Shown here piece by piece: positions 18,057 to 33,200 of a DNA stretch of 64,000 nt; the first letter of the stretch is position 1, and the number at the start of each line of letters is the position of its first letter. The position numbers and the translations under genes are program-made. The stretch spans positions 1,676,038 through 1,740,037 of the forward strand of contig NZ_JACHIR010000001.1 of assembly GCF_014203355.1 (NCBI RefSeq), in the 5' to 3' direction. Origin of the DNA: Kutzneria kofuensis (GTDB lineage: Bacteria > Actinomycetota > Actinomycetes > Mycobacteriales > Pseudonocardiaceae). The notes under the pieces were generated by a model. The model did no database searches, had not been told where the DNA came from, and worked only from the letters and a program-made list of their open reading frames with translations.

Positions 18057-18080
18057 CTGGAGCACCTCTCCCGACCGAAT

Positions 18081-18102
18081 TACTGACCGTCCGTTCGTTA
18101 AC
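18081..18102. promoter_or_regulatory. PaaR-type TetR operator between paaZ and paaG
   Basis: ACTGACCG-TCCGTT-CGTTAA is an imperfect dyad between the divergent paaZ and paaG genes. The same half-sites with the same 6-base spacing appear ahead of paaJ and the TetR gene at 20951-20973, which supports a shared regulator. Confidence 0.7.
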
Positions 18103-18118
18103 ATGCTAGCGTGAGGAC

Positions 18119-18910
18119 ATGGATGGGGAAACCGTGTCGCTCGATGTCGACGGAGCTGTCGCGACCATCACCCTGGACGCGCAGGCTCGCCGCAACGCGC
18201 TCACCGTGGAGATGAAGCAGGCGCTGCTGGCCGCGGTACGGCAGGTCGCCGCCGACGATTCGGTCCGCGCCGTCGTGCTCACCGGCTCCGGACGCGCGTT
18301 CTGCGCAGGTCAAGACCTTGCCGAGCACGCCGCCGCGCTGCGGGCGGACGCCGCCACCGCGCTGGACACGGTCGGCGACCACTACAACCCGCTTGTGCTG
18401 GCGCTGACCGGCATGCCCAAGCCGGTGCTCGCGGCCGTGAACGGAACCTGTGTCGGCGCCGGGTTGGGCCTGGCGCTGGCCTGCGACCTGCGGATCGCCG
18501 CCGAATCGGCCAAGTTCGCCACGGCCTTCACCGGCATCGGACTGACCTGCGACTCCGGTCTGTCGGCGACCCTCGCCCGGGCCGTCGGCGCGGCCCGGGC
18601 CAGCGAACTCGTGCTGCTAGGGCAGCCCTTCACCGCCGCTCAGGCGCTGGAGTGGGGCGTGGTCGGCCGGATCGTGCCGGACGAGTCGTTCCTCGGGGAG
18701 GTCAAAGCCCTGGCGGCGAAGCTCGCGGCGGGGCCGACGCTTGCGTACGCCGAAGCGAAGGCCGCCTTGGCGGCGAGCTTCCAGCCGCCGCTGGCCGACG
18801 TGCTGGCCGCGGAAGCGGCGGCGCAGACCCGGCTCGGCCTGACCGCCGACCATCAGGGGGCCGTGGAGTCCTTCCTGGCCAAGCAGCCGGTCGTCTTCCA
18901 CGGCAAGTAG
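18119..18910 (+). CDS. paaG: enoyl-CoA hydratase/isomerase, PaaG-type epoxide isomerase
   Basis: The 263-residue crotonase-fold protein has GRAFCAGQDLAEH (oxyanion hole), NGTCVGAGLGLALACDLRIA and FTGIGLTCDSGLSATLAR, the last being typical of PaaG rather than PaaF. PaaG converts the ring 1,2-epoxide to oxepin-CoA. It is divergent from paaZ across the shared operator, and its stop abuts the stop of the convergent paaH gene with no spacer. GAGGA lies very close to the ATG. PaaF activity could also come from this or another hydratase; no second one is in the window. Confidence 0.88.
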   Translation: MDGETVSLDVDGAVATITLDAQARRNALTVEMKQALLAAVRQVAADDSVRAVVLTGSGRAFCAGQDLAEHAAALRADAATALDTVGDHYNPLVLALTGMPKPVLAAVNGTCVGAGLGLALACDLRIAAESAKFATAFTGIGLTCDSGLSATLARAVGAARASELVLLGQPFTAAQALEWGVVGRIVPDESFLGEVKALAAKLAAGPTLAYAEAKAALAASFQPPLADVLAAEAAAQTRLGLTADHQGAVESFLAKQPVVFHGK

Positions 18911-19750
18911 TCAGTTCCAGGGGTAGAAGCCCTGCCCCGACTTGCGGCCCAGTTCGCCCCGCTCCACCTTGTCCCGCAACAGCCTCGGCGGGGCGAACCG
19001 GTCGCCCAGCGTCCGCTCCAGGTACTCCGCGATGGCCAGCCGCACGTCCAGGCCGACCAGGTCGGTCGAGCGCAGCGGCCCCATCGGGTGGCCGTAGCCC
19101 AGCTCCATGGCCCGGTCGATGGCCTCGGCGTCGGCGACGCCCTCCTCCAGCATCCGGATCGCCTCCAGGCCGAGCATCACGCCCAACCGGCTGGTGGCGA
19201 AGCCCGGCGAGTCGCGGACGACCACGTCGGCCTTGCCCAGCAGCCGCACCCACTCCAGTGCCTTGTCCCGGACGGCGTCGGAGGTGTTGGGGCCCAGCAC
19301 GATCTCCACCAGCTTGGACACCGGCACCGGGTTGAAGAAGTGCATGCCCAGGAACCGGTCCGGATGCACCAGCACGGCGCCCAGCTCGGCGACCGACAGC
19401 GAGCTGGTGTTGGTGGCCACCACGGTGGTCGTGGAGACGGCGAGCTCGACCGCCGTGAGCACGCGGACCTTCAGCTCGGGAGCCTCCGGCACGGCCTCCA
19501 CCACCAGGTCGGCCCGTGACGGCAGCGACGGGATCTCCGTGACGAAGTCGATGCGCGAGAGCACCTGGGTCGGCGTGCCGTCCAGCTTGCCCCGCTCGGC
19601 GGCGCGGCGCAGGCCCGTCTCGACCCGCGTCAAGGCGGCCTTGGCGGCGATGGTGTCGCTCTCCACCACCGTCACCTCGGCGCCGACCGCGGCGAACACC
19701 TGAGCGATGCCGGCCCCCATCCGGCCGCCCCCGACAACACCGATCTGCAC
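18911..19750 (-). CDS. paaH: 3-hydroxyacyl-CoA dehydrogenase (PaaH type)
   Basis: The 279-residue protein opens with the Rossmann motif VVGGGRMGAGIAQ and has the catalytic His segment LGMHFFNPVPVSKLVEIV (HFFNP) and the C-terminal helical domain with LGYGHPMGPLRSTDLVGLD. It oxidises 3-hydroxyadipyl-CoA to 3-oxoadipyl-CoA with NAD. It is shorter than the E. coli PaaH, which has a tandem C-terminal domain. It follows paaJ with a 1-base gap and is co-transcribed with it. Confidence 0.9.
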   Translation of the reverse strand: MQIGVVGGGRMGAGIAQVFAAVGAEVTVVESDTIAAKAALTRVETGLRRAAERGKLDGTPTQVLSRIDFVTEIPSLPSRADLVVEAVPEAPELKVRVLTAVELAVSTTTVVATNTSSLSVAELGAVLVHPDRFLGMHFFNPVPVSKLVEIVLGPNTSDAVRDKALEWVRLLGKADVVVRDSPGFATSRLGVMLGLEAIRMLEEGVADAEAIDRAMELGYGHPMGPLRSTDLVGLDVRLAIAEYLERTLGDRFAPPRLLRDKVERGELGRKSGQGFYPWN

Positions 19751-19751
19751 G

Positions 19752-20918
<1,167 letters not shown>

Positions 20919-21646: not shown

Positions 21647-21690
21647 TTGGCCGCCGCGCCTGATTCCCTGCCGACCCCTGGGGGTTGTTC

Positions 21691-22281
21691 ATGCGCAAGA
21701 GGTTCGCCTTACCCCTGTTCGCCGCCTTGGCCGTCGCCCTGCCCGTGCTGTTCGCCGGCACCGCGCAGGCCCACGGCTACACCACCAACCCCGTCAGCCG
21801 TTCCTCCCTGTGCGCCCAGCGCATCGTCACCGGCTGCGGCGACATCCAGTACGAGCCCCAGTCCGTCGAGGGTCCCAAGAACTTCCCCCAGGCCGGGCCC
21901 GCCGACGGCAAGATCTGCGCCGGTGGCATCTCCCGCTTCAGCCAGCTCGACGACCCTCGCGGCGGCACCTGGCCCGCCACCAAGCTCACCAGCGGGGCCG
22001 CCTACACCTTCACCTGGCACTTCACCGCCATCCACGCCACCACGTCTTTCCGCTACTTCGTCACCCGTAACGGCTGGGACCCCACCAAGCCCCTCACCCG
22101 GGCCGCCCTCGACCCCGCCCCCTTCCTCGTCTCCAACTGGGGCGGCAAGCGGCCCTCCGGTGACGTCTCCATCCCCGGCACCCTCCCCGCCGGCAAGTCC
22201 GGCCGCCACCTCATCCTCGGCGTCTGGGACATCGCCGACACCGGCAACGCGTTCTACTCCTGCGCCGACGTCACCTTCTGA
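21691..22281 (+). CDS. secreted lytic polysaccharide monooxygenase, AA10 (chitin-type)
   Basis: The 196-residue protein has a Sec signal peptide ending FAGTAQA after residue 27, so the mature enzyme begins with His28, the copper-binding N-terminal His of LPMOs. The second copper His is His115 in TAIHATTSFRYFVT. It is a single AA10 domain with no chitin-binding module. Such enzymes cleave crystalline chitin (or cellulose) oxidatively outside the cell. The dre site ahead of it points to chitin. ATG 21691 is chosen with GGGGG as a weak ribosome site. A strong hairpin follows the stop. Confidence 0.93.
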   Translation: MRKRFALPLFAALAVALPVLFAGTAQAHGYTTNPVSRSSLCAQRIVTGCGDIQYEPQSVEGPKNFPQAGPADGKICAGGISRFSQLDDPRGGTWPATKLTSGAAYTFTWHFTAIHATTSFRYFVTRNGWDPTKPLTRAALDPAPFLVSNWGGKRPSGDVSIPGTLPAGKSGRHLILGVWDIADTGNAFYSCADVTF

Positions 22282-22354: not shown

Positions 22355-23848
22355 TCATCCCTTGGCACTGAGGATTTTCATGGCGGCGTTGTGGCCGGGG
22401 ATGCCGGAGACGCCGCCGCCGCGTTGGGCGCCGGCGCCGCAGAGGAGGATGCGGGGGTGGGCGGTTTCGACGCCCCAGGAGCCGGGGGCATCGTCGCTGT
22501 AGGGCCAGGAGAGGTCACGGTGGAAGATGTGGCCGCCGGGGAGGCCGATGGACTGTTCGAGGTCGACGGGGGTTTTGGCTTCGATGCAGGGGCGGCCGGC
22601 GGGGTCCAGCCAGAGGCAGTCCTCGATGGGCTCGGCGAGAACGTGGTTGAGGGAAGCCAAGGTGGCGGCGAGGGCCTGGGAGCGGGCGGAAGGGTTGTCG
22701 GAGGCGAAGAGGCGCGCGGGCATGTGCAGGCCGAAAAGGGTGAGGGTGTGGGCACCGGGTTCGCGGACGATGGAGGGGTCGGTGAGGGAGTGGCAGTAGA
22801 TCTCGCAAGGGGGTAGCGAGGGGATCCGGCCGGCGGAGGCTTCGGCGAAAGCGCTGGCGAGCTGGGAAAAGCTCTCGTTGACGTGGAAGGTGCCGCCGAA
22901 GGCGTCGCGGGGGTCGACGGAGGTGTCGCGGAGGCGGGGCAGGCGGCGGAGGACCATGTTGACCTTGAGCTGGGCGCCCTCGGCGGGTGAAGGGGTCTCG
23001 CCGAGGAGTCGGGAGAGCTCGGCCGGCGAGGCGTTGACCAGGACGTGGTCGCCGTGCACGACATGGGAGGTTTCGTCGGCGACGTAATGGACTTCGCCGT
23101 CGGGGGTGATGGAGGTGACGGTGGCGCCGGTGCGGATCTGGGCGCCGGCGGAGCGGGCGGCGTGCTCCAGGGCAGCGGTGACGGAACCCATGCCGCCGAC
23201 AGGGACATCCCAGTCGCCGGTGCCGTTTCCGATGACATGGTAAAGGAAACACCGGTTCTGGAGCAGTGAAGGGTCGTCGGCGGAGGCGAAGGTGCCGATG
23301 AGGGCGTCGGTGAGCACAACGCCGCGGACGGTGTCGTCACGGAAGGTGCGCTCGATGACGTGGCCGACGGGCTCCTCGAACAAGGCGTGCCAAGCCTGGT
23401 CGTCGTCGACGACGGAACGCAGGGAAGCCTTGCTGGGCAGGGGTTCCGTGAGAGTGGGAAACACGCGTTGGGCGACGCGGCCCGTCATGGCGTAGAAGCG
23501 TTGCCAGGCGGCGAAGTCATCGGGGTCCACGAAGGACTGAGAAGTACGGGAAGGGTCTTCGGTGTCGATGAGCAGGCCGCGATCGCCGACGGGCGTGTAG
23601 GAGGACATCCGGCGGCGGAGCAAGGTGATCGGCAGACCGAGGTCGTCGATCACCTTGCGCGGCAACAGGCTCACCAGGTACGAGTAGCGCGACAGCCGGA
23701 CGTCGACGCCGGGGAAGGCCTGGAAGGACACGGCGGCGCCGCCGACGGAGTCGAGCCGCTCCAGGACCTGCACGGACTTCCCGGCCCGAGCCAGGTACGC
23801 CGCGGCCACCAGGCCGTTGTGCCCACCACCGACGATGACGACGTCCAC
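22355..23848 (-). CDS. FAD-dependent oxidoreductase, phytoene-desaturase/PYROXD2-like
   Basis: The 497-residue flavoprotein starts with the dinucleotide motif VDVVIVGGGHNGLVAAAYLA and ends with LLCGAGAQRGGGVSGIPGHNAA, the C-terminal FAD motif of the phytoene-desaturase/CrtI-like group. It should oxidise or desaturate an unknown substrate. GTG 23848 is preferred because AGGAG lies 8 bases ahead; an ATG 10 codons upstream would sit inside the preceding gene. It is the third gene of a GS-like/decarboxylase/oxidoreductase operon on the minus strand, and so may act on a product of the decarboxylase. Confidence 0.85.
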   Translation of the reverse strand: MDVVIVGGGHNGLVAAAYLARAGKSVQVLERLDSVGGAAVSFQAFPGVDVRLSRYSYLVSLLPRKVIDDLGLPITLLRRRMSSYTPVGDRGLLIDTEDPSRTSQSFVDPDDFAAWQRFYAMTGRVAQRVFPTLTEPLPSKASLRSVVDDDQAWHALFEEPVGHVIERTFRDDTVRGVVLTDALIGTFASADDPSLLQNRCFLYHVIGNGTGDWDVPVGGMGSVTAALEHAARSAGAQIRTGATVTSITPDGEVHYVADETSHVVHGDHVLVNASPAELSRLLGETPSPAEGAQLKVNMVLRRLPRLRDTSVDPRDAFGGTFHVNESFSQLASAFAEASAGRIPSLPPCEIYCHSLTDPSIVREPGAHTLTLFGLHMPARLFASDNPSARSQALAATLASLNHVLAEPIEDCLWLDPAGRPCIEAKTPVDLEQSIGLPGGHIFHRDLSWPYSDDAPGSWGVETAHPRILLCGAGAQRGGGVSGIPGHNAAMKILSAKG

Positions 23849-23858
23849 CAGGCGACTC

Positions 23859-25220
23859 CTATCCGGCCAGCGCGACAACCCTTTCGTGCAGCCTACCCAG
23901 ATAGCCCTCGGACTCGGGCTTCATCAACACACTGCGCAGCACCCGGGCCCCGGCGACGTCGGCGACGGCGGCGATGCCCCGCATGCCGAACGCGTCGGCG
24001 CCGGCCCGCAGCGTGCTGAGGTAGATCGGATCGTCCTTGTCGGTCATGCCCTCCCGCAGCATCCGCCCGGACGCGGCGTCGATCGCGGAGAGCGTCGACT
24101 CGGCGGGGAAATAGGTGACGATGTCCAACTCGGGCCGCTGGTAGGGCACGAGTCGATCGGACTGGCCGATCAGCTCGTGCCACCGGACGGCGGCGCGGCG
24201 GCCGGCGGCGAGCACGGCGCCGAGACCGTCGGACCGCAGCGGCAGGAGCTTGAGCGTCAGCCACAGCGCCGCGGCGGCGGCGCCGGGGCGGGAGCACTCC
24301 AGGCTGATCTCCCCGAGATGCAGCTCGTCGGAGGTGAAGTAGGTGTACGGGGAATCGTGCACGTAGAAGCGTCCGACGGACGGATCGGCGAACAGCACTG
24401 CACCGCAACCATAGGGTTGAAGGCCGTGCTTGTGCGGATCGACCACAATGGAGTCACAGTGCCGAATTGCCTGCCATGGCACGGGATCGATGCCTTCGGT
24501 GCCGGCAATCAGGCTGAAGAACCCGCCATAGGCAGCATCGACGTGGATCCGGAAGTCGTACCGGGACCGCAGTGCCACAACCTCGTGCACGGGGTCGACG
24601 ACGCCAAGCCCGGTGGTGCCGGCGGTGACGACGACAGTGCCGATCTTTCCCTTACGGAGCAAGGACTCCAGGGCATCCAGGTCTATCTTGCCAGTGCCGT
24701 CGACCGGGACGGCGTGACCGGCCACGCCGATCAGCTTACACATCCGCGAATGCGTGTAGTGACTGTCCGCGCTGTACGCCACACCGAGGCCGGGATGCAT
24801 TTCCCTTGCCACGTGAAGGGCTTCGAGGTTGGCGATGGTGCCGCTGGAGGTCAGGTGACCGAGGTGCTCGCCGTAGCCGAACATCTCAGCGAGCTGGCGG
24901 ACGACCTCCCGCTCCATCTTCGCGGTGGCGGGACCACCGTCGAGGGCGTGGTTGTTGGGATTGATCAGCATCGCCGCGGCGTAGCCGGCGATCGCCACCG
25001 GGTGCGGCGGCTTGAGCATCTGGCCGGCGTACCGGGGATGGAAGAACGGGTAGTTGTCGCGTAGCCGGGACGCCAGCTCGTCGAGCGCGGCCTCGACCTC
25101 GCTTTCCTTGAGTGCCAACGAATCGTGCGGCGTGAACTGGCCGAACTCGGCGGCCCACGACTCGTGGTTGGCCAGCACCCGGTCCAGCCAGGGGCGCAAC
25201 TGCTCAGATGTGGTAGGCAT
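23859..25220 (-). CDS. PLP-dependent decarboxylase (group II, aromatic/glutamate decarboxylase family)
   Basis: The 453-residue enzyme belongs to the group II PLP decarboxylases: HLTSSGTIANLEAL binds the phosphate, HVDAAYGGFFSL contains the Asp that pairs with the PLP ring nitrogen, and VDPHKHGLQPYGCG contains the PLP-binding Lys. It should convert an amino acid to an amine; tyrosine, DOPA or glutamate cannot be told apart by eye. Its ATG overlaps the end of the glutamine-synthetase-like gene by 17 bases. Context near hpa genes favours an aromatic amino acid, as inference. Confidence 0.88.
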   Translation of the reverse strand: MPTTSEQLRPWLDRVLANHESWAAEFGQFTPHDSLALKESEVEAALDELASRLRDNYPFFHPRYAGQMLKPPHPVAIAGYAAAMLINPNNHALDGGPATAKMEREVVRQLAEMFGYGEHLGHLTSSGTIANLEALHVAREMHPGLGVAYSADSHYTHSRMCKLIGVAGHAVPVDGTGKIDLDALESLLRKGKIGTVVVTAGTTGLGVVDPVHEVVALRSRYDFRIHVDAAYGGFFSLIAGTEGIDPVPWQAIRHCDSIVVDPHKHGLQPYGCGAVLFADPSVGRFYVHDSPYTYFTSDELHLGEISLECSRPGAAAAALWLTLKLLPLRSDGLGAVLAAGRRAAVRWHELIGQSDRLVPYQRPELDIVTYFPAESTLSAIDAASGRMLREGMTDKDDPIYLSTLRAGADAFGMRGIAAVADVAGARVLRSVLMKPESEGYLGRLHERVVALAG

Positions 25221-26520
25221 ACTCGCGGAACTCCCAATCGGTCACCCACTGCTCGAACCGGGCGACCTCGGCCCGCTTGAGCACGCTGAACGAGCTCACG
25301 AAGTCCTTGCCCAGCACGGCCTGCAGCGCCGAGTCGTCGTCGAGCGCGTCCAGCGCGGCGGTGAGCGACATGGGCAGCACGGCCGTGCGATCGGCGTCGT
25401 AGCCGTAACCCTCAAGCGGCGCAGGGGGTTCCAGCCCGTCCTCGATGCCGAGCCGCATCGCGGCCAGCACACCCGCGTGCACCAGATACGGGTTGGCGGA
25501 GGCGTCGGGCAGCCGCACCTCGACACGGGTGTTGGCACCACGCTCGGGCGGCACGCGGACCATCGCGCTGCGGTTGTCCAGGCCCCAATCGATCAACCAC
25601 GGCGCGAGCGTGTCCGGGCCGAAACGCTTGTAGGAGTTGACGGTCGGGTTGGTCAGCGCGGTCAGCGCGGGCGCGTGCCGGAGCACGCCGGCCAGGGCGT
25701 GACGCAGCAGCGGGCTCATGCCGTACTCGGCGGACTCGTCGGCGCCGAGGTTCTCCCCCGCCGCGTCGACGAACGACACGTGCACGTGGAAGCCGGACGC
25801 GCCGTGCTCGTTGAACGGCTTGGCCATGAACGTCGCGAGCTTGCCCTCGCGCCGGGCCAGATCCTTGACGGCGGCCTTGAACCGGAAGGCCCGGTCGGCG
25901 GAGTCCAGCGCGCCGGAGTGGGCGAGGTTGATCTCGAACTGGCCCGGGCAGTACTCGTGGTTGCCGCTGAGCACGCCGAGCCCGAGGTCGCGCAGGTGTC
26001 GGACGGTGCGGATCAGGTGCAGGTCGGGGTCGCCGCGGGTGCCGCTGACGTAGATGTTGCCGGGTTCCGGGGAGTACGGCGCGAAACCGGTCCCGGCCGG
26101 CACGCACAGGTAGTACTCCAGTTCGGGGCCGACCAGCGGACGCAGCCCGGACTCGGCGAGTCCGGCGACGACCCGGCCGAGCACCGCCCGCGGCGACTCG
26201 CCGCCGTCGCGCTGGTCGCCGATGCACGTCGCCACGCCCGGTTCCCACGGCACCATGGCAAGCGTGTCGAGGTCGGGGATGATCTCCATGTCCGGCAGGC
26301 CGGCGTTCAGTCCACCGGGGACCGGAACCGTGTCGCCGAGCGGGCTGGTGTGGTAGACGGCGCGGCAGAAGGCGACGCCTCGTTCGACGGCGGCGGGCAG
26401 CTGCTCGACCAGCAGCTCCTTGGAGCGCTCGGTGCCCATCAGGTCCGGAAAGGCGACCCGGACGACGTCCACGCCCTTGGCGGTCAGTTCGGCCACGACG
26501 CGGTCGGCCTGCGCTGCCAT
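25204..26520 (-). CDS. glutamine synthetase-like gamma-glutamyl-amine ligase
   Basis: The 438-residue protein has the type I glutamine synthetase catalytic fold: GPELEYYL (metal Glu), NHEYCPGQFEINL, GFHVHVSF (metal His) and the C-terminal RVEVRLPDASANPYLV. The N-terminal half has diverged from true GlnA. Homologues with this pattern (PuuA, IpuC, GlnA3/GlnA4) attach glutamate to amines rather than ammonia. It is the first gene of an operon with a PLP decarboxylase and an FAD oxidoreductase. GGAGGGTGGAGG lies directly ahead of the ATG. Amine specificity is inferred from the neighbours. Confidence 0.85.
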   Translation of the reverse strand: MAAQADRVVAELTAKGVDVVRVAFPDLMGTERSKELLVEQLPAAVERGVAFCRAVYHTSPLGDTVPVPGGLNAGLPDMEIIPDLDTLAMVPWEPGVATCIGDQRDGGESPRAVLGRVVAGLAESGLRPLVGPELEYYLCVPAGTGFAPYSPEPGNIYVSGTRGDPDLHLIRTVRHLRDLGLGVLSGNHEYCPGQFEINLAHSGALDSADRAFRFKAAVKDLARREGKLATFMAKPFNEHGASGFHVHVSFVDAAGENLGADESAEYGMSPLLRHALAGVLRHAPALTALTNPTVNSYKRFGPDTLAPWLIDWGLDNRSAMVRVPPERGANTRVEVRLPDASANPYLVHAGVLAAMRLGIEDGLEPPAPLEGYGYDADRTAVLPMSLTAALDALDDDSALQAVLGKDFVSSFSVLKRAEVARFEQWVTDWEFREYAYHI

Positions 26521-26585
26521 CCTCCACCCTCCGTCGTTTGATTCCGAACCATAGCGCCGTGACAGGTCGGCAACAAGAGCGATAT

Positions 26586-26601
26586 CGTACGTATCCAAAC
26601 G
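26586..26601. promoter_or_regulatory. operator in the GS-operon/AAD divergent promoter
   Basis: CGTACG-TATC-CAAACG shares the CAAACG half-site and the GTATCC core with the perfect dyad ahead of hpaE (27483). It lies between the divergent glutamine-synthetase-like operon and the acetoacetate-decarboxylase-like gene, so one regulator could govern both directions. Confidence 0.6.
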
Positions 26602-26619
26602 AACTTGGGGAGGCGGGAC

Positions 26620-27396
26620 GTGAAGGGCTTTCTGCATCCGCGCACACCTACCGGGCGGGCGTCGGTGACCGCCGGGCCGCCGTGGCACTACGCGGGCGAC
26701 CTGATCACCATCGAGTACCGCACGGATCCGGGCAAGGTCGCCGCGCTGCTGCCCGACCCCCTCACCCCGGCCGCCGACGATCCCGGCGCCGTCGCACTCA
26801 TCTGGGCCGACTGGCAGGCGTGTTCCGACGGCGGCGAGGAGCTGCTCGACCCGGTCCGCTCGCAGTACAAGGAATGCTTTGTCGTCGTGCGCTGCCAGTT
26901 CGCCGGCCGGACCTATTCGCGGTGTGTGTTCATCTGGGTGGACAAGGACTTCTCCATCGCGCGCGGTGTGCACCAGGGCTATCCCAAGAAGTTCGGCTCC
27001 ATCCACCAGACCCGGCCGCACCCCTTCGGCCCCGCCCCGCGGCTCGAGACCGGCGCCCGGTTCGGCGCCACCCTCGCCGCCGGCGACCGCCGACTCGCCG
27101 AGGCCGTCATCGAGTTGACCGAACCCAGTCCCCACAACGGTTTCGTCAATGCGCATCCGATGGCGCACCACCGTTGGCAGCCCAGCATCGAGCCCGGCAA
27201 GCCGGACAGCTACGCGGAGTTGGTGGAGTCGAAGTCGGCGTCGTTCGAGGGCGGCCAGGCCTGGGCCGCCCGGGCCGACCTGCGGCTGTTCGAGGCACCG
27301 ACCGAGGAGTTGGCGGATCTCACCGTGGACGAGCACATCGGGGCCTACTACCGGCAGGTCGGTGTCACCTGGAACGGCGGAACCGTGCTGGCCTGA
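26620..27396 (+). CDS. acetoacetate decarboxylase-family protein
   Basis: The 258-residue protein matches the acetoacetate decarboxylase fold: PPWHYAGDLITIEYRTDP at the N terminus and GYPKKFGSIHQTR, which keeps the paired Lys of which one forms the Schiff base in the classical enzyme. Family members act as decarboxylases or as aldolase/dehydratases on keto acids. GTG 26620 is chosen, with GGGGAGG ahead. It directly precedes hpaE-hpaD-hpaG on the same strand, so its substrate is probably a keto-acid intermediate of homoprotocatechuate breakdown. That role is inference. Confidence 0.82.
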   Translation: MKGFLHPRTPTGRASVTAGPPWHYAGDLITIEYRTDPGKVAALLPDPLTPAADDPGAVALIWADWQACSDGGEELLDPVRSQYKECFVVVRCQFAGRTYSRCVFIWVDKDFSIARGVHQGYPKKFGSIHQTRPHPFGPAPRLETGARFGATLAAGDRRLAEAVIELTEPSPHNGFVNAHPMAHHRWQPSIEPGKPDSYAELVESKSASFEGGQAWAARADLRLFEAPTEELADLTVDEHIGAYYRQVGVTWNGGTVLA

Positions 27397-27402
27397 TGTG
27401 CC

Positions 27403-27449
27403 CGAAACCTGCATTCGGTGTGCCCGAGAGCGTGACTCGCGGGGGTGTC
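27403..27449 (+). repeat. dispersed repeat copy (CATTCGGTGTGCC type) after the AAD gene
   Basis: The sequence GAAACCTGCATTCGGTGTGC followed by CCGAGAGCGTGACTCGCGGG begins a few bases after the stop of the acetoacetate-decarboxylase-like gene. It is a close copy of the repeats at 12302, 12370 and 54334. It is not part of any gene. Confidence 0.8.
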
Positions 27450-27482
27450 GGGGCGGGTTGACGGGCCCAACCGAGCGACGTA

Positions 27483-27498
27483 CGTTTGGATACAAACG
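27483..27498. promoter_or_regulatory. operator ahead of hpaE
   Basis: CGTTTG-GATA-CAAACG is a perfect dyad with 6-bp arms 17-32 bases ahead of hpaE. It shares an 11-base stretch with the site at 26586-26601. A MarR/HpaR- or TetR-type repressor is a plausible binder; the MarR gene at the end of this gene group is a candidate. Confidence 0.7.
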
Positions 27499-27514
27499 AT
27501 ATTACGGAGACATG

Positions 27515-28948
27515 ATGGTCGACCACTGGATCGGGGGCAGGCGAGTCACGTCGCCGGTCCGCTTCGACGACATCTCCCCCATCGACGGCTCGGTGCTCGC
27601 GCACGTGTCCCGGGCCTGTCCCTACGAGGTCGACCTCGCCGTCGACGCGGCGGAACGGGCCTTCACGGACTGGCGCCGAACCACCCGCGAGCAACGCGCC
27701 GAATACCTGCACAAGATCGCCGACGGCGTCGAGAAGCGGATCGACGAACTGGCCGCGGTCGAGACCTCGGACAACGGAGCGCTGCTGCGCTCGCACGTGC
27801 GCGGCGTGATGCCCCGCGTGGTGCACAACTTCCGCTTCTTCGCGGACTGGCTGGTCGACGAGGTCAGCCACCCCGACTTCGACACCCGAGGCCACACCAA
27901 CCACGTCAGCTGGGACCCGGCCGGCGTGTGCGCGCTGATCACGCCCTGGAACGCGCCGCTGATGCTGGCCAGCTGGAAGATCGCGCCGGCCCTGGCCGCG
28001 GGCAACACGGTGGTGCTCAAGCCGGCCGAGTGGTCGCCGCTGACGGCGTCGCTGCTCGCCGACATCACCGCCGAGGCGAACCTGCCGGACGGCGTGTTCA
28101 ACGTGGTCAACGGCTACGGCGTGGAAACCGGCCAGCACCTGGTGAACAACCCGAAGCTGCGCCGGATCAGCTTCACCGGCTCGGTGCCGACCGGCCGCGC
28201 CATCGCCCAGGCCGCCGCGGCCAACCTGGTGCCGGCGTCGCTGGAACTCGGCGGCAAGTCGCCGCTGATCGTGTTCGCCGACGCCGATCTGGACTTGGCA
28301 GTTCAGTTGGCCGTCGAGCAGTACGACAACGCCGGGCAGGTGTGCCTGGCCGGGGTGCGGCTGCTGGTCGAGGAGTCGATCGTCGCCGAGTTCCTCGCCG
28401 GCTTCCTGACCAGGGCGGACGCCCTCAAGCAGGGGGATCCCCGCGATCCTTCGACGGACGTCGGCCCGCTGGTCCACCGCCGCCAGCTGGAACGCGTGGA
28501 CACGTTCGTGCGGCGGGCGAAGGCCGAAGGGGCGCGAGTGCTGCTCGGCGGCGGCCCGAACACCGACCTCGGCGGCCTCTACTATCGGCCGACGCTGCTG
28601 GCGGATGTCCAGCCGGGCAGCGAAATCCTCACCGAGGAGGTGTTCGGCCCGGTGCTGACGGTCCAGACCTTCCGCCGCGAGGAGGATGCCGTCACGATGG
28701 CCAACGGCACCCGCTTCGGGTTGGCGGCGACCCTGGTGACCGGCGACGAGGACCGCGCGAACCGGGTCACCGAGCAGCTGGTCGCCGGCACGGTGTGGGT
28801 GAACTGCTTCTTCGTGCGGGACCTGCGGGCGCCGTTCGGCGGCAGCCGCGAGTCCGGCATCGGCCGCGAGGGCGGCAACTGGAGCTTCGATTTCTATTGC
28901 GACGTCAAGAACACGGTCACGGCGGGACAGGGGTGGCGGCATGGGTGA
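27515..28948 (+). CDS. hpaE: 5-carboxymethyl-2-hydroxymuconate semialdehyde dehydrogenase (HpaE)
   Basis: The 477-residue aldehyde dehydrogenase has ITPWNAPLMLASWKIAPALA, the catalytic Glu in LELGGKSPL and the catalytic Cys in NAGQVCLAGVRLLV. Together with the adjacent ring-cleavage dioxygenase this fits HpaE, which oxidises the semialdehyde formed by meta cleavage of homoprotocatechuate. ATG 27515 has GGAG at a good distance; the ATG one codon earlier is too close. It overlaps hpaD by 8 bases. Confidence 0.9.
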   Translation: MVDHWIGGRRVTSPVRFDDISPIDGSVLAHVSRACPYEVDLAVDAAERAFTDWRRTTREQRAEYLHKIADGVEKRIDELAAVETSDNGALLRSHVRGVMPRVVHNFRFFADWLVDEVSHPDFDTRGHTNHVSWDPAGVCALITPWNAPLMLASWKIAPALAAGNTVVLKPAEWSPLTASLLADITAEANLPDGVFNVVNGYGVETGQHLVNNPKLRRISFTGSVPTGRAIAQAAAANLVPASLELGGKSPLIVFADADLDLAVQLAVEQYDNAGQVCLAGVRLLVEESIVAEFLAGFLTRADALKQGDPRDPSTDVGPLVHRRQLERVDTFVRRAKAEGARVLLGGGPNTDLGGLYYRPTLLADVQPGSEILTEEVFGPVLTVQTFRREEDAVTMANGTRFGLAATLVTGDEDRANRVTEQLVAGTVWVNCFFVRDLRAPFGGSRESGIGREGGNWSFDFYCDVKNTVTAGQGWRHG

Positions 28949-29816
28949 GGTTGTCGGCGCGGGTCTGCTCTCCCACGTTCCGACGATCATGTTGCCCGAG
29001 CACGAGCGGCGGGAGCTGAACGGCGGCCGGGACTTCACGCTGGTCGCCGGCCTGGAACAGCTGCGCGCGGAGGTGTTCGAACGACTGGACTACGACACGG
29101 TGGTGGTGCTGGACTCGCACTGGGCGACCACCGTCGAGTTCGTCGTGACCGCGCACGCGAGAAGGGCCGGCCTGTTCACGTCCGAGGAGCTGCCGCGCGG
29201 GATGTGCCGCATTCCGTACGACTTCGAGGGCGACCCGGAGCTGGCGCGGGCCGTCGCCGCGCACGGCGAGAAGCAGGGAACCTGGATCACCCCGATCGAC
29301 GACCAGTACCTGCCGATCTACTACGCCACCGTGAACCTGTGGCGCTACCTGGGCGTGCCGGGCAAGCGCTGGGTGTCGATCGGCGTCTGCCAGACCGCCG
29401 ACATGGAGGACAACCTGCGGCTGGGCCGGGCGCTGGCCGCCGGGATCGCCGACAGCGACCGGAAGGTGCTGCTGGTCGCGTCGGGGGCGCTCAGCCACAC
29501 CTTCTGGCCGCTGCGCGAGCTTCGCCAGCACGAGGCCGCCGGCATCGAGCACATCCGCACGCCGGAGGCGGCGCGGGCGGACCTGCAGCGCATCGACTGG
29601 TTCCGCCGCGGCGATCACGCGAAGATCCTCGACACCATGCCGGAGTTCGCGAAGTTCAAGCCCGAGGCGGGTTTCGGGCACTACCTGATGATGGCCGGCG
29701 CGCTGGGCGAGCGGGCGTGGCGGGCGCCGGGGCGGCTGTACAGCGAGTACGAGAACGCGGTCGGCACCGGACAGGTGCACATCTGGTTCGACCGCCCGGC
29801 CGAGGGATGGACGTGA
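28941..29816 (+). CDS. hpaD: 3,4-dihydroxyphenylacetate 2,3-dioxygenase (HpaD, LigB-type)
   Basis: The 291-residue protein belongs to the LigB class III extradiol dioxygenases: GLLSHVPTIMLP near the N terminus, VVVLDSHWATT, and VASGALSHTFWP supply the conserved His and Glu-type ligands of the iron site. It cleaves homoprotocatechuate next to its hydroxyl groups using oxygen. Position between hpaE and hpaG, with overlaps at both ends, fits this substrate well. Confidence 0.9.
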   Translation: MGEVVGAGLLSHVPTIMLPEHERRELNGGRDFTLVAGLEQLRAEVFERLDYDTVVVLDSHWATTVEFVVTAHARRAGLFTSEELPRGMCRIPYDFEGDPELARAVAAHGEKQGTWITPIDDQYLPIYYATVNLWRYLGVPGKRWVSIGVCQTADMEDNLRLGRALAAGIADSDRKVLLVASGALSHTFWPLRELRQHEAAGIEHIRTPEAARADLQRIDWFRRGDHAKILDTMPEFAKFKPEAGFGHYLMMAGALGERAWRAPGRLYSEYENAVGTGQVHIWFDRPAEGWT

Positions 29817-30658
29817 CGGAGTACCGCAGGATCCTGCTCGACGGCGCCGTCGTCGAGGTCACGCGAGACGGCGACGAGCTGTACGCCCCGGACGGGCGAT
29901 CCGTGAAACTGGACGGTGCAGTTCACCTACCGCCCTGCGAACCGTCGAAGATCATCGCGGTGCACCTGAACCACCGCAGCCGGGTCGAGGAGTTCCAGGC
30001 GAGGCTCCCCGCCGCCCCGACGTACTTCCACAAGCCGACGTCGGCGCTGAACGCCCACGGCGGGGCGGTGGTCAGGCCCGAGGGCTGCCGGTGGCTGAAC
30101 TACGAGGGCGAGGTCGCCATCGTGATCGGCCGGACCTGCCGCAACATCGCGCCGGACGAGGCGGGCGACCACATCCGCGGCTACACCATCGCCAACGACT
30201 ACGGCCTGCACGACTTCCGCGACACCGACGCCGGCTCCATGCTGCGGGTGAAGGGATCGGACACGTTGTGCCCCTTGGGTCCCGGCCTCGTGACCGACTG
30301 GGACTTCCGCGGCCGCACCCTGACCACCCGCGTCAACGGGGAGGTCAAGCAGCGGGGCAGCACCGACGAGATGGAGTGGGACATGCACTACCTCGTCGCC
30401 GACATCGCGCGGACCATCACCCTCCACCCCGGCGACGTCCTGCTGTCCGGGACGCCGGCCAATTCCCGCCCCGTGCAGCCGGGGGACGTCGTCGAGGTCG
30501 AGGTGGACGGGCTCGGCGTGCTGCGCAACCACATCGTCAGCGGCCCGAAAGGCATCCGCAGCGACGTGGGAGCACAGCCCACGGAGTCGGAGGAGGTCCG
30601 CTCCACGGCTCTCGGCGGCGACTGGGAGTTCCGCGGCATCCGCCCGCCTCGCCGCTGA
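29807..30658 (+). CDS. hpaG: fumarylacetoacetate hydrolase-family isomerase/decarboxylase (HpaG)
   Basis: The 283-residue protein has one FAH domain: LNYEGEVAIVIGR and the later DVLLSGTP and PGDVVEVEVDGLG. HpaG enzymes isomerise and decarboxylate the linear product after HpaE. The E. coli enzyme is made of two such domains in about 430 residues, one for each step; here only one domain is present, so one of the two reactions may be done by another protein. ATG 29807 is used; GTG 29813 (GTGA overlap with hpaD, GAGGG ahead) is equally possible. Confidence 0.85.
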   Translation: MDVTEYRRILLDGAVVEVTRDGDELYAPDGRSVKLDGAVHLPPCEPSKIIAVHLNHRSRVEEFQARLPAAPTYFHKPTSALNAHGGAVVRPEGCRWLNYEGEVAIVIGRTCRNIAPDEAGDHIRGYTIANDYGLHDFRDTDAGSMLRVKGSDTLCPLGPGLVTDWDFRGRTLTTRVNGEVKQRGSTDEMEWDMHYLVADIARTITLHPGDVLLSGTPANSRPVQPGDVVEVEVDGLGVLRNHIVSGPKGIRSDVGAQPTESEEVRSTALGGDWEFRGIRPPRR

Positions 30659-30739: not shown

Positions 30740-31315
30740 CTACGAAGCGTCGTTGGCGGCGAGGGTGGGCAGCGAGCTGGACTGGACCTGCTGGCGGACC
30801 TCGGCCTGCCGGGCCGTCGAGGTCTGCTCGAAGTGGTTGAGCATGTGCCGCAGCACCCGGGTCAGCTCCGCGATCCGCCGCTGCGACAGCCCCTCGAGGC
30901 TGTACACCTCCTCGGCGTTGAAGCGCGGGAACAGCTCGGTCATCAGCGCCTTGCCGCGGTCGGTCAGCGACAGCACGCTCAGCCGCCGGTCGTCGGCGGG
31001 CGTGGTCCGGGTCAGCAGTCCCCGGTTGGCCAGGGTCCGCGCGACGCCCGTGAGCGTGCCCTTGGAGATGCCGCTCTCCTCGGCCACGTGCCGGGTCTCG
31101 ATGTCGCCCCAGATCCACACCACCCACAGCACCACGAAACCGGTCCACGAGAGGTCCACGTCCCGCAGCACGGACTGCTCGAAGTGGTTGCGCACCACCA
31201 GGGCCGTCCGGTGCAGGTTGGACAGCGCCATCATCGACTCGACGTCGATCGGCAGGCCGTTGAGGCGCTCGCCGACGGCCTTCTCGGTCTCGCGCAGCGT
31301 GTAGTAGCCGGTCAC
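30740..31315 (-). CDS. MarR-family transcriptional regulator
   Basis: The 191-residue protein has a MarR winged helix: the recognition region VAEESGISKGTLTGVARTLA and the wing TTPADDRRLSVLSLTDRG, with longer N- and C-terminal helices than usual and a polar C-terminal tail. GTG 31315 is chosen without a clear ribosome site. It lies downstream of the glycosyltransferase gene on the same strand and is convergent with the hpa operon. It could be the HpaR-type repressor of the hpa genes or a regulator for the glycosyltransferase; the sequence does not decide. Confidence 0.85.
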   Translation of the reverse strand: MTGYYTLRETEKAVGERLNGLPIDVESMMALSNLHRTALVVRNHFEQSVLRDVDLSWTGFVVLWVVWIWGDIETRHVAEESGISKGTLTGVARTLANRGLLTRTTPADDRRLSVLSLTDRGKALMTELFPRFNAEEVYSLEGLSQRRIAELTRVLRHMLNHFEQTSTARQAEVRQQVQSSSLPTLAANDAS

Positions 31316-31362: not shown

Positions 31363-32496
31363 CTAGACCAGTTCGGCCAACCGGGCCACCACCGCGGCGG
31401 GGCTGGGCTGCTCGGCGATCTCGTCCCGCACCTCGGCGGCGGCCTTGCCGAACGCGGGGTCGTCGAGCACCCGGGCCAGCGCCGCCCCGACCTGCTCCGG
31501 CTCGGCGACGGTCAGCCCGACCCCGCGATCGGCCATCAGCTTGGCGTTGAGCGGCTGGTCGGCGAACTTGGGCAGCGACACCTGCGGCACCCCGTGGACC
31601 AGCGGCGTCATCACCGTCGCCGAGCCGCCGTGATGCACGATCGCGGCGCACGTCGGCATCAGCGCCCCCAGCGGCATCCAGCCGAGCGGCCGGACGTTGG
31701 CCGGCAGCTCCCCCAGCTCGGAGAGGTCGATGTCGCCGAGCGCCAACAGGATCTCGATGTCCATTGTGGACAGATCGGCCAGGATGCCGCGCAGCACGCC
31801 GACCCCGCCCAGCGCCGGCAGCACGCTGCCGAGGGTGAGACACACGCGGGGACGCTCCGGCGGCAGGGCGACCCAACCCGGCACGACACGGGACTCGTTG
31901 TACGGGACGTACCGCATCAGGAACTGGGTGTCGGTGGCGGTGCCGCCCATGCTCGGCGGGCGGACGTCGATGGTCGCCACGGGCTCGACCGGCGCCTCGG
32001 GCAGGCCCAGCCGCTGCCGGGTCGGCTCCAGGTAGTCGGCGATGTCCCGCCGGGAGGTCACCACGTGCTCCTCCAGGCCGGCCCAGCCCAGCCGGATGCC
32101 CTGCTCGACCAGCGGCACGCCCAGGTCGGCGGCGATCAGCCGGCCGGCGCCCTGCTCGGTCGTGGTGATCACCAGGTCCGGCCGGAACGCCCGGGCCACG
32201 GGCAGCATGCCGTCGATCATGTGCTGGCCGAACCAGCCGAAGCCGCCCCGCTCCGGCTCGCGGTCGGCGTCCCCCTTGAGCATGCCGGCGACGGCGGCCA
32301 GGAACTCCGCCCACAGGTCGCGCTCGGGCAGCGGGTCCACCACCGGCAGGCCGGCGCCGGCGGCCGCGCGGGCCCCGTCGCCGTTGTTGAGCAGCAGCAC
32401 CTCGTGGCCGGCGGCCCGCAAGGCCCAGGCCAGCGGCACGGTCGGCAGGAACAGCCCGCTTCCGGGCACGGCGGTGCACAGCACTCGCACGGTCAT
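31363..32496 (-). CDS. macrolide-type (GT1, EryCIII-like) glycosyltransferase
   Basis: The 377-residue protein is a GT-B fold enzyme of the antibiotic glycosyltransferase group: N-terminal VRVLCTAVPGSGLFLPTVPLA and a C-terminal nucleotide-sugar site with AAIVHHGGSATVMTPLVHGVPQV and FADQPLNAKLMAD. Such enzymes add sugars to polyketides or inactivate macrolides by glucosylation. It is an isolated tailoring-type gene with no polyketide synthase near. It is divergent from a TetR regulator across a long palindrome, the usual set-up for an inducible resistance gene. GGGGGAG precedes the ATG. Confidence 0.88.
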   Translation of the reverse strand: MTVRVLCTAVPGSGLFLPTVPLAWALRAAGHEVLLLNNGDGARAAAGAGLPVVDPLPERDLWAEFLAAVAGMLKGDADREPERGGFGWFGQHMIDGMLPVARAFRPDLVITTTEQGAGRLIAADLGVPLVEQGIRLGWAGLEEHVVTSRRDIADYLEPTRQRLGLPEAPVEPVATIDVRPPSMGGTATDTQFLMRYVPYNESRVVPGWVALPPERPRVCLTLGSVLPALGGVGVLRGILADLSTMDIEILLALGDIDLSELGELPANVRPLGWMPLGALMPTCAAIVHHGGSATVMTPLVHGVPQVSLPKFADQPLNAKLMADRGVGLTVAEPEQVGAALARVLDDPAFGKAAAEVRDEIAEQPSPAAVVARLAELV

Positions 32497-32511
32497 CTCC
32501 CCCTTGATCGT

Positions 32512-32543
32512 CTTGAGCGGCGCTCAATTGAGCGCTGCTCAAG
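32512..32543. promoter_or_regulatory. 32-bp near-perfect palindrome, TetR operator
   Basis: The left half CTTGAGCGGCGCTCAA is followed by its reverse complement with one mismatch. It contains two TTGAGC/GCTCAA pairs and lies between the divergent glycosyltransferase and TetR genes, 16 and 48 bases from their starts. Two TetR dimers could bind. Confidence 0.85.
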
Positions 32544-32590
32544 CTACGGTGGGTAGACTGCCGCCGTCAAGAGGCGAGGAGAGGAAGCGG

Positions 32591-33193
32591 ATGCCGCTGC
32601 GACGGGAACAGGTGGTCGAGGCCGCGCTGGAGCTGCTGGACGAGGTGGGGCTGGACGCCTTCACCACACGCGCGCTCACCGACCGGCTCGGCGTGCAGCG
32701 CGGCGCCCTGTACTGGCACGTCAAGAGCAAGCAGGAGCTGCTCACCGCCGTCACCGAGCTGCTGGTGCGGCCGGTCTTCGAGGTCGACGGCGAGGACCTC
32801 GACTGGCCCGACGCGCTGGTCGAGTTCGCCCACCGGCTGCGCGCCGCCATGCTGGCCCACCGCGACGGCGCTCGGCTCGTCGCCGCGCACGTCACCCTCA
32901 GCGCGGCGGGGGTCGAGCTGCTCGAACGGGTCCTCGCCCAGTACGCCCGGCAGGGCATCCCGGCGGTCGTGGCCGCGCGCTGGGGCGACATCATGGCCAG
33001 CTACGTCACCGGCTTCGTGCTCCAGGAGCAGTCCGCCCCGGCCGAGATCCCCGTCGACACCAGTGCGGCCGGCCCGGCCATGCGGGAGTTCTTCGCCGAC
33101 GGCCAGCCCAGCAGCGCCGAGACCTTCGCCGCCTCCGTCCGAACCATCGTCCTGGGCATGCAGGCCGAAGCCGCCACGCTGATCCAGGCTTGA
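32591..33193 (+). CDS. TetR-family repressor, tetracycline-repressor (TetR_C) type
   Basis: The 200-residue protein has the helix-turn-helix GLDAFTTRALTDRLGVQRGALYWHVKSKQELL, very close to that of the tetracycline repressor class, and a TetR_C-like ligand domain. It probably represses itself and the divergent glycosyltransferase through the 32-bp palindrome and is released by a drug-like ligand. It ends 7 bases before the SARP gene, so the two may be co-transcribed. Confidence 0.9.
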   Translation: MPLRREQVVEAALELLDEVGLDAFTTRALTDRLGVQRGALYWHVKSKQELLTAVTELLVRPVFEVDGEDLDWPDALVEFAHRLRAAMLAHRDGARLVAAHVTLSAAGVELLERVLAQYARQGIPAVVAARWGDIMASYVTGFVLQEQSAPAEIPVDTSAAGPAMREFFADGQPSSAETFAASVRTIVLGMQAEAATLIQA

Positions 33194-33200
33194 GGGTTGA

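What the first reader, a model, noticed from the sequence alone, without database searches (positions are those of the whole stretch)
22355..30658. Shared operator links a GS-like/decarboxylase/oxidoreductase operon to homoprotocatechuate genes
The same motif (CGTTTGGATAC, part of CGTTTG-GATA-CAAACG) lies in the divergent region of the GS-like operon and AAD gene and ahead of hpaE. Seven genes would then be co-controlled: a PLP decarboxylase that makes an amine, a ligase that may glutamylate it, an FAD oxidoreductase, and the meta-cleavage genes. This would fit an aromatic amine (tyramine/dopamine-like) route to homoprotocatechuate via gamma-glutamyl intermediates, not a route I know as described.
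Basis: partly seen in the sequence, partly recalled or inferred. Interest (0 to 1): 0.75.

Follow-up and report, generated by a model that had tools for sequence, protein, structure and literature searches.

The report
Glutamylated catecholamine ring-cleavage pathway
A set of soil-bacterium genes sharing one DNA switch looks like an undescribed way of eating tyramine or dopamine: attach glutamate to the amine, break the aromatic ring while the glutamate stays on, and finish as pyruvate, GABA and glutamate.

Summary
The shared motif is real and is one copy of an operator conserved across Actinobacteria: the palindrome GTTTG-N4-CAAAC (up to 1 mismatch) occurs 178 times in 276 upstream regions of this gene set, against 0.85 expected from shuffles. 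The window belongs to Kutzneria. Of 59 HpaD-like loci with 8 kb or more on each side, GS-like is present in 52, the acetoacetate-decarboxylase-like (ADC) gene in 54, PuuC-like in 48, PuuD-like in 47.

PuuC and PuuD have no use in a route to free homoprotocatechuate. They fit if the ring is cleaved while still N-gamma-glutamylated: the same chemistry on gamma-glutamyl-dopamine gives pyruvate plus gamma-glutamyl-4-aminobutanal (formula check), the PuuC substrate; PuuD then releases GABA and glutamate. The MppR-like ADC protein is the likely hydratase/aldolase. The HpaD/E/G-like proteins score below their curated cut-offs, and HpaI was not found in the host genome.

So co-regulation is supported, gamma-glutamyl intermediates are supported by inference, and "to homoprotocatechuate" is probably wrong. 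No enzyme was assayed, the window itself lacks PuuC, PuuD and the P450, and ten literature searches of an open-access library found no such route.

The parts
22355..23848 (-). FAD-dependent oxidoreductase (497 aa), last gene of the GS operon; found only in Kutzneria among the loci held; role unassigned
   Evidence: Pfam DAO/Amino_oxidase, best NCBIfam beta-carotene ketolase CrtO far below cut-off; recurrent cluster in the window and 5 Kutzneria genomes
23859..25220 (-). PLP decarboxylase (453 aa), nearest to tyrosine decarboxylases; inferred to make dopamine from L-DOPA or tyramine from tyrosine
   Evidence: Pyridoxal_deC; TIGR03811 133 bits and MfnA 132 bits, both below cut-off; solved-structure relatives
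25204..26520 (-). GS-like ligase (438 aa), inferred gamma-glutamyl-dopamine/tyramine synthetase
   Evidence: Gln-synt_C 323 bits; flap Glu of true GS replaced by Leu305 in 67 of 67 rows, other active-site acids kept; separate clade
26535..26550 (.). operator-like site 1, CGTTTGATTCCGAACC, 2 mismatches
   Evidence: conserved, 51 bp from site 2, in four other Kutzneria
26620..27396 (+). ADC-like protein (258 aa), MppR-type; inferred hydratase/retro-aldolase giving pyruvate + gamma-glutamyl-4-aminobutanal
   Evidence: ADC 190.8 bits, MppR 191.4 bits below cut-off 380, solved relatives, Schiff-base Lys in 66 of 68 rows, the other 2 gaps
27483..27498 (.). operator site 3, perfect palindrome CGTTTGGATACAAACG
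27512..28948 (+). HpaE-like semialdehyde dehydrogenase (478 aa)
   Evidence: HpaE 520.4 bits, cut-off 638.35
28941..29816 (+). HpaD-like LigB-type extradiol dioxygenase (291 aa)
   Evidence: HpaD_Fe 136.8 bits, cut-off 315.95; H12, H60, E242 in 81 of 82 rows
29807..30658 (+). HpaG-like decarboxylase/isomerase (283 aa)
   Evidence: HpaG C-terminal 199.7 bits, cut-off 276.4
30740..31315 (-). MarR-family regulator (191 aa), inferred to bind the operator
   Evidence: MarR 41.7 bits; HpaR 44.6 bits, cut-off 121.2; relative in 46 of 59 well-flanked loci

Best explanation
The locus is the Kutzneria version of a dedicated actinobacterial pathway that degrades tyramine/dopamine with the amine masked as a gamma-glutamyl amide. 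(1) A decarboxylase makes dopamine from L-DOPA (Kutzneria and a few others), or a P450, often with ferredoxin and reductase, adds the second ring hydroxyl to tyramine or its glutamyl form (most other genera seen). (2) The GS-like ligase makes gamma-glutamyl-dopamine. (3) The HpaD-like dioxygenase opens the ring; the mask stops the amine from condensing with the new aldehyde. (4) HpaE-like oxidises that aldehyde. (5) HpaG-like removes CO2. (6) The MppR-like ADC protein hydrates and cleaves, giving pyruvate and gamma-glutamyl-4-aminobutanal. (7) PuuC-like makes gamma-glutamyl-GABA. (8) PuuD-like releases GABA and glutamate. A regulator, most likely the MarR protein, controls the set through GTTTG-N4-CAAAC. 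Shown here: gene set, conservation, operator, residue conservation, formula balance. Inferred: every substrate and activity, and MarR binding. In the window's genome steps 7-8 would have to use genes elsewhere (a GS+PuuD+PuuC-like group near 2.29 Mb).
For: Of 59 well-flanked HpaD loci, 41 hold all of GS, ADC, HpaE, HpaD, HpaG, PuuC, PuuD; GS is accompanied by P450 or PLPdec in 50 of 52. Operator 178 against 0.85 expected; GS|ferredoxin 22 of 22, divergent aldehyde-dehydrogenase regions 28 of 28, ADC|GS 16 of 19 and GS|ADC 12 of 13. Genome G022 splits the set about 1.4 Mb apart and both parts have an operator. Genome G006: first locus lacks ADC/PuuC/PuuD, second locus (L080) has them beside HpaE/HpaD and an FAD monooxygenase. 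Formula balance ends in C9H16N2O4 = gamma-glutamyl-aminobutanal. HpaD/E/G-like below Hpa cut-offs; HpaI not found in 5 of 7 genomes including the host; none of 38 annotated recurrent neighbour clusters (of 39) is HpaH- or HpaI-like. GS flap Glu lost. ADC-like genes induced on phenol beside a meta-cleavage dioxygenase in Saccharolobus, aldolase role suggested by its authors (PMC7820114, passages).
Against: No activity known. Window and L035 lack PuuC/PuuD locally, and in L034 puuC is broken. 7 of 59 well-flanked HpaD loci lack GS; G013 has the GS ortholog but no HpaD, and G012 only a 56% one with no cluster gene around it. HpaH-like proteins occur in 7 of 7 genomes and an HpaB-like protein in 3 of 7 including the host. 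Operator absent before marR alone (0 of 22), P450 alone (0 of 13) and in MarR|permease regions (0 of 11). The FAD oxidoreductase has no step; no ring hydroxylase assigned in Kutzneria. Loci were picked by HpaD; 306 of 386 relatives were not looked at.
Confidence: 0.63

Rival explanations
1. One reading: an aromatic amine is glutamylated and later converted to free homoprotocatechuate, which the HpaD/E/G proteins degrade in the ordinary way to succinic semialdehyde.
For: HpaD/E/G homology; gamma-glutamyl ligase and decarboxylase in the same regulon; HpaH-like proteins in 7 of 7 genomes.
Against: Needs deamination of an amide-masked amine with no enzyme for it recognised in the set; leaves PuuC- and PuuD-like genes unexplained (48 and 47 of 59 loci); HpaI not found in the host; scores below Hpa cut-offs.
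Confidence: 0.12
2. Ordinary tyramine/dopamine or 4-hydroxyphenylacetate degradation via homoprotocatechuate, with the GS/Puu genes serving another amine and sharing only the regulator.
For: HpaB-like protein in the host on another contig; PuuC-like enzyme could act as an arylacetaldehyde dehydrogenase (StyD-type scores 468 bits).
Against: No linked HpaB, HpaH, HpaI or amine oxidase recognised among recurrent clusters; GS and HpaD stay together in 52 of 59 loci over many families.
Confidence: 0.1
3. Polyamine (putrescine) gamma-glutamylation genes that happen to neighbour an aromatic cluster.
For: GS/PuuC/PuuD resemble the putrescine route; the host has a second GS+PuuD+PuuC-like group.
Against: No PuuB-like oxidase among recurrent clusters outside the Kutzneria-only FAD oxidoreductase; cluster GS is its own clade; shared operator.
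Confidence: 0.05
4. Same logic, other substrate: another catechol-ethylamine or a derivative (for example phenethylamine after ring dihydroxylation, octopamine-like or a plant phenolamine).
For: Substrate is read from pathway logic only; P450, FAD monooxygenase (L080) or a Rieske-type oxygenase (L098) occur as possible hydroxylases.
Against: PLP decarboxylase nearest to tyrosine decarboxylases; the final PuuC/PuuD steps fit a two-carbon amine side chain.
Confidence: 0.1

Closest known systems
4-hydroxyphenylacetate/homoprotocatechuate meta-cleavage pathway (Hpa; in P. putida U also for tyramine and dopamine)
   Same: HpaD-, HpaE- and HpaG-like proteins, HpaR-like MarR regulator, same ring chemistry
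   Different: All below equivalog cut-offs; no linked HpaB/HpaH/HpaI recognised; GS, PuuC and PuuD added. P. putida U route seen only as an introduction passage and a reference title in PMC10606097; enzyme order from the abstract of PMC12718150
Putrescine gamma-glutamylation (Puu; GlnA3 route of Streptomyces)
   Same: GS-like ligase, PuuC- and PuuD-like last steps, proposed shared intermediate gamma-glutamyl-4-aminobutanal (PMC9397018, passages)
   Different: The intermediate would come from an aromatic ring, not from oxidation of a second amine; no PuuB-like oxidase recognised in the widespread set
Aniline and 1-naphthylamine degradation (AtdA1/NpaA1 GoaS enzymes)
   Same: A GS-like enzyme glutamylates an aromatic amine before oxidation; GATase-like partner gene
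   Different: There the dioxygenase turns the glutamylated amine into catechol or 1,2-dihydroxynaphthalene, so the nitrogen leaves before ring cleavage (PMC11335346, passages and section 9); here it is proposed to stay through ring cleavage
MppR / ADC-like aldolase-dehydratases (4jm3, 4zbo, 5upb)
   Same: Family, Schiff-base lysine, pyruvate chemistry
   Different: Proposed breakdown direction in a catabolic route; below the MppR cut-off (191 against 380 bits). That 4zbo is Sbi_00515 and 5upb is Swit_4259 is recalled
MfnA/MfnD gamma-glutamyltyramine formation in methanofuran biosynthesis
   Same: Tyrosine decarboxylase followed by gamma-glutamylation of tyramine (recalled)
   Different: Biosynthetic; MfnD is not GS-like (recalled)

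Membership tests
Homoprotocatechuate (Hpa) meta-cleavage pathway | HpaD, HpaE, HpaG at equivalog score | tested here: not met
   136.8/315.95, 520.4/638.35, 199.7/276.4 bits
Homoprotocatechuate (Hpa) meta-cleavage pathway | HpaI aldolase in the host genome | tested here: not met
   no match in the host; 2 of 7 genomes have sub-cut-off matches
Homoprotocatechuate (Hpa) meta-cleavage pathway | HpaH hydratase | tested here: inconclusive
   HpaH-like in 7 of 7 genomes, over cut-off in 1 (G032), none at the locus
Homoprotocatechuate (Hpa) meta-cleavage pathway | linked 4-HPA 3-hydroxylase HpaB | tested here: not met
   one HpaB-like match in the host, on contig C3, 678.7 bits below cut-off 885.2
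Homoprotocatechuate (Hpa) meta-cleavage pathway | activity on homoprotocatechuate | not testable with these tools
   needs enzyme assay
Puu gamma-glutamylation pathway | PuuA-type ligase at equivalog score | tested here: not met
   GGputSyn 252.5 bits, cut-off 650
Puu gamma-glutamylation pathway | PuuC and PuuD homologs in the set | tested here: met
   48 and 47 of 59 well-flanked loci, family level only: scores below cut-offs; not met at the window's own locus
Puu gamma-glutamylation pathway | PuuB oxidase | tested here: inconclusive
   none recognised among recurrent clusters, FAD oxidoreductase only in Kutzneria
Glutamine synthetase (ammonia-using) | flap Glu of the ammonia site | tested here: not met
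   Leu305 in 67 of 67 rows, aligned to the Glu of GYEAP in five solved GS; role of the Glu recalled
GS-like amine ligases (GoaS) | GS fold with active-site acids kept but not an ammonia enzyme | tested here: met
   Gln-synt_C 323 bits; E133, E135, E189, E196, E334 in 67 of 67 rows
GS-like amine ligases (GoaS) | activity on an organic amine | not testable with these tools
   needs enzyme assay
MppR-type ADC-like aldolase-dehydratase | ADC fold family and Schiff-base Lys | tested here: met
   160.6 bits to MppR 4jm3; Lys128 in 66 of 68 rows, 2 gaps
MppR-type ADC-like aldolase-dehydratase | MppR equivalog score | tested here: not met
   191.4 bits, cut-off 380
HpaR (MarR family) | MarR domain | tested here: met
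   41.7 bits, cut-off 24.6
HpaR (MarR family) | HpaR equivalog score | tested here: not met
   44.6 bits, cut-off 121.2
Tyrosine decarboxylase | equivalog score | tested here: not met
   133.2/905.3 (TIGR03811) and 132.1/299.4 (MfnA) bits, yet the two best matches

The most novel reading that the evidence does not exclude
A widespread actinobacterial pathway degrades tyramine/dopamine by masking the amine with glutamate and cleaving the aromatic ring while the mask stays on, merging aromatic meta-cleavage with the gamma-glutamylation pathway into pyruvate + GABA + glutamate, with an acetoacetate-decarboxylase-like enzyme as hydratase/aldolase and one operator family controlling it.
Probability: 0.6. 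Interest if true: 0.86.

Novelty: new variant of a known kind. Interest (0 to 1): 0.8.

Why it matters
It would be a further way for bacteria to use tyramine and dopamine, beside routes through 3,4-dihydroxyphenylacetate. It would explain a gene set found in many actinobacterial families whose members look, one by one, like glutamine synthetase, acetoacetate decarboxylase and homoprotocatechuate genes. It gives MppR-like ADC proteins a natural catabolic role, predicts the substrate of a GS-like clade, and shows a protecting-group logic: glutamate keeps the amine from reacting with the aldehyde that ring cleavage makes. Each step gives a directly testable prediction.

Tried and rejected
The two other CGTTTGNATAC sites in the genome (L031, L032) were fetched; they lack the second half-site, and the three ORFs tested beside or over them have no Pfam match. 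Treated as chance. The other perfect GTTTGNNNNCAAACG site (C1:5669785, L139) lies in a region with a histidine kinase, a response regulator and a PhoU-domain protein; no link seen.

A loose scan of the window for the palindrome (up to 3 mismatches) found fewer sites than expected (10 against 20.5), so the case does not rest on the window alone.

The first GS tree was spoiled by four paralogs read in a wrong frame (L013, L016, L025, L030). The repeat used 34 of the 66 cluster rows and 14 of the 18 paralogs and is the one cited.

The tyrosinase search was uninformative because no control genome rang. The best full-length P450 relative in the host is 40% identical, so no ring hydroxylase could be assigned for Kutzneria.

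Literature: ten searches listed no gamma-glutamyl-tyramine/dopamine ring-cleavage pathway. The library is open-access PMC only, and listings were read by title and abstract start, apart from five papers opened. Structure prediction was not used; it would not settle substrate.
Full report
Observation. The copy before the hpaE-like gene is part of a perfect palindrome at 27483-27498; the copy between the divergent GS-like and ADC-like genes sits in an imperfect palindrome at 26586-26601; a third imperfect site at 26535-26550 had been missed. Each site is 13-18 nt from a start codon (hpaE, ADC, GS; read). In the 10.4 Mb genome CGTTTGNATAC occurs four times, two of them here, against none for the reversed control; the other two lack the second half-site. 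In-window scans with mismatches are not enriched.

Where it is from. A search of 60 related genomes for the GS-like protein gave 10 close orthologs beside the window's own, at 55-95% identity. Stretches of 17-20 kb around them hold GS, PLPdec, ADC, HpaE, HpaD, HpaG and MarR all together in 4 of 10 (L033, L034, L036, L037); L035 lacks ADC, L039 lacks PLPdec, L038 ends inside HpaG and lacks HpaE and MarR, L042 holds GS, PLPdec, MarR and HpaE, L040 GS, PLPdec and MarR, L041 GS and MarR. In L035 hpaE lies directly divergent from GS, with a perfect operator and an imperfect one between them.

The missing pieces. L037 and L039 carry two further genes inside the cluster: a PuuC-like aldehyde dehydrogenase (577 and 559 bits to PuuC, cut-off 850) and a PuuD-like hydrolase (64 and 66 bits to gamma-glutamyl-GABA hydrolase, cut-off 266); L039 also has a P450 and an amino-acid permease. 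L033 and L036 have the PuuC-like gene; in L034 it is broken; the window and L035 lack it. In the 80 best HpaD loci of 386 relatives the same set recurs. Ferredoxin and ferredoxin reductase are further recurrent neighbours, together in 38 of 85 de-duplicated loci, 33 of them with the P450. Of the 59 loci with at least 8 kb on each side of hpaD: HpaE 59, HpaG 57, ADC 54, GS 52, PuuC 48, PuuD 47, MarR 46, P450 44, permease 37, PLPdec 8, FAD oxidoreductase 4; all of GS, ADC, HpaE, HpaD, HpaG, PuuC and PuuD in 41. GS is accompanied by P450 or PLPdec in 50 of 52. PLPdec and P450 occur together in one of the 59 (L070; Fisher p 1.3e-4, kinship ignored).

The operator is conserved. In 276 upstream regions of cluster genes from 83 loci (five loci repeating genomes already held were dropped), GTTTG-N4-CAAAC occurs 76 times exactly and 178 times with up to one mismatch; Markov-shuffled copies give 0.0 and 0.85. 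The 348 other upstream regions of the same loci give 5 and 21 (0.0 and 0.6 in shuffles). At least one site is present in 77 of 83 loci and two or more in 63. It lies in GS|ferredoxin regions (22 of 22), divergent aldehyde-dehydrogenase regions (28 of 28), ADC|GS (16 of 19), GS|ADC (12 of 13) and before the permease (17 of 21); it is absent before marR alone (0 of 22), P450 alone (0 of 13), ferredoxin alone (0 of 9) and in MarR|permease regions (0 of 11). When the set is split the operator goes with it: in genome G022, GS/PLPdec/MarR/HpaE and ADC/HpaE/HpaD/HpaG are about 1.4 Mb apart and each has a site. That the MarR protein binds it is inferred.

What the pathway most likely does. Ordinary homoprotocatechuate cleavage ends in pyruvate plus succinic semialdehyde; the enzymes are listed in the abstract of PMC12718150. 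That route has no use for a gamma-glutamyl ligase, PuuC or PuuD. If the dioxygenase, dehydrogenase, decarboxylase and hydratase/aldolase act on N-gamma-glutamyl-dopamine instead, the side chain CH2-CH2-NH-Glu replaces CH2-COOH, and the last product besides pyruvate is gamma-glutamyl-4-aminobutanal, C9H16N2O4 (formula bookkeeping). That is what PuuC handles in the putrescine pathway, and PuuD then makes GABA and glutamate (pathway order: passages of PMC9397018). Glutamylation also makes sense as a mask: a free amine would be expected to condense with the aldehyde formed on ring cleavage, as in betalamic-acid chemistry (recalled). Genome G006 supports the order: its first locus (L035) lacks ADC, PuuC and PuuD, and its second (L080) has HpaE, HpaD, ADC, PuuC and PuuD in a row behind an FAD monooxygenase, without GS or HpaG.

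Support from the proteins. The GS-like protein keeps the conserved active-site acids, but the Glu of the GYEAP flap in true glutamine synthetases is Leu in 67 of 67 rows (the window's is counted twice; role of that Glu recalled). Cluster GS form one side of a branch with 99/94 support. HpaD-, HpaE- and HpaG-like proteins score below the curated cut-offs, while H12, H60 and E242 of HpaD, its probable metal ligands (recalled), are kept in 81 of 82 rows. The ADC-like protein matches MppR and related solved structures and keeps the Schiff-base lysine. HpaI was not found in 5 of 7 genomes including the host. Of the 39 neighbour clusters present in four or more loci, 38 were annotated through representatives (the last is about 80 aa); none is HpaH- or HpaI-like. 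The authors of PMC7820114 saw two ADC-like genes induced 77- and 82-fold on phenol in Saccharolobus and suggested an aldolase role from MppR (passages). The PLP decarboxylase is nearest to tyrosine decarboxylases, though far below their cut-offs.

Results against. The window lacks PuuC, PuuD and P450; its genome has relatives elsewhere (PuuD-like, 41% and 54% identical in two pieces, beside a second GS and a 42% PuuC-like gene near 2.29 Mb; best PuuC-like 46%). Seven of 59 well-flanked HpaD loci lack GS. G013 has a GS ortholog but no HpaD, and G012 only a 56% HpaD with no other cluster gene near it. HpaH-like proteins (7 of 7 genomes) and an HpaB-like protein (3 of 7, host included) leave room for an ordinary pathway. 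The Kutzneria-only FAD oxidoreductase has no assigned step, and how Kutzneria gets the second ring hydroxyl is open; L-DOPA as the starting point would remove the need, but that is a guess. Loci were chosen by HpaD similarity, so the association of the other genes with HpaD is measured, not the reverse; from the GS side, HpaD lies within the stretch in 8 of 11 (the window, L033-L039).

Known or new. The parts are known kinds. The combination, ring cleavage of a still-glutamylated catecholamine ending in GABA, was not listed by ten searches of the open-access library; subscription papers were not searchable. Pseudomonas putida U uses tyramine and dopamine through 3,4-dihydroxyphenylacetate (an introduction passage and a reference title in PMC10606097). 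In aniline and naphthylamine routes the glutamylated nitrogen is lost when the diol is formed (PMC11335346, passages and section 9).

Noticed in passing
14801-20918: Phenylacetyl-CoA (paa) genes beside the finding: PaaB, PaaA and PaaZ over cut-off, PaaG-like, 3-hydroxyacyl-CoA dehydrogenase and thiolase; kept beside the cluster in several Kutzneria.
   Followed up: partly
21685-22281: AA10-type lytic polysaccharide monooxygenase (LPMO_10, 168.6 bits) directly beside the FAD oxidoreductase gene.
   Followed up: no
L034 13074-14030: The PuuC-like gene of K. buriramensis is broken into separate pieces, while the window and L035 lack it altogether: repeated local loss within the genus.
   Followed up: partly
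L080 7000-13835: Second cluster in Kutzneria sp. CA-103260: FAD aromatic monooxygenase, HpaE, HpaD, ADC, PuuC, PuuD in a row, without GS or HpaG.
   Followed up: partly
L071 6341-11200 and L074: Short variants with a second GATase, P450, GS, HpaD, ferredoxin and reductase but no HpaE, HpaG or ADC in the held stretch.
   Followed up: no
L056, L062, L071, L091, L098, L099 and others (35 loci): A second glutamine-amidotransferase-like gene (cluster 10, PRK07053-like) recurs beside the set; role unknown, perhaps like the GATase partner of aniline GoaS enzymes.
   Followed up: partly
L082 13618-14529 and 26 other loci: A luciferase-like (F420-type) oxidoreductase recurs beside the set.
   Followed up: no
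L098 12208-13929, L099 4242-5186: A Rieske/VanA-type oxygenase (L098) and Fer2 reductases in loci of Aeromicrobium and Mycolicibacterium, possible alternative hydroxylase.
   Followed up: partly
L130 7345-8430: A TnpB gene sits between ADC and HpaE in Actinosynnema sp. ALI-1.44.
   Followed up: no
31363-35882: EryCIII-like glycosyltransferase, TetR and a BTAD-type regulator follow the MarR gene and are kept beside it in several Kutzneria; possibly a separate natural-product function.
   Followed up: no
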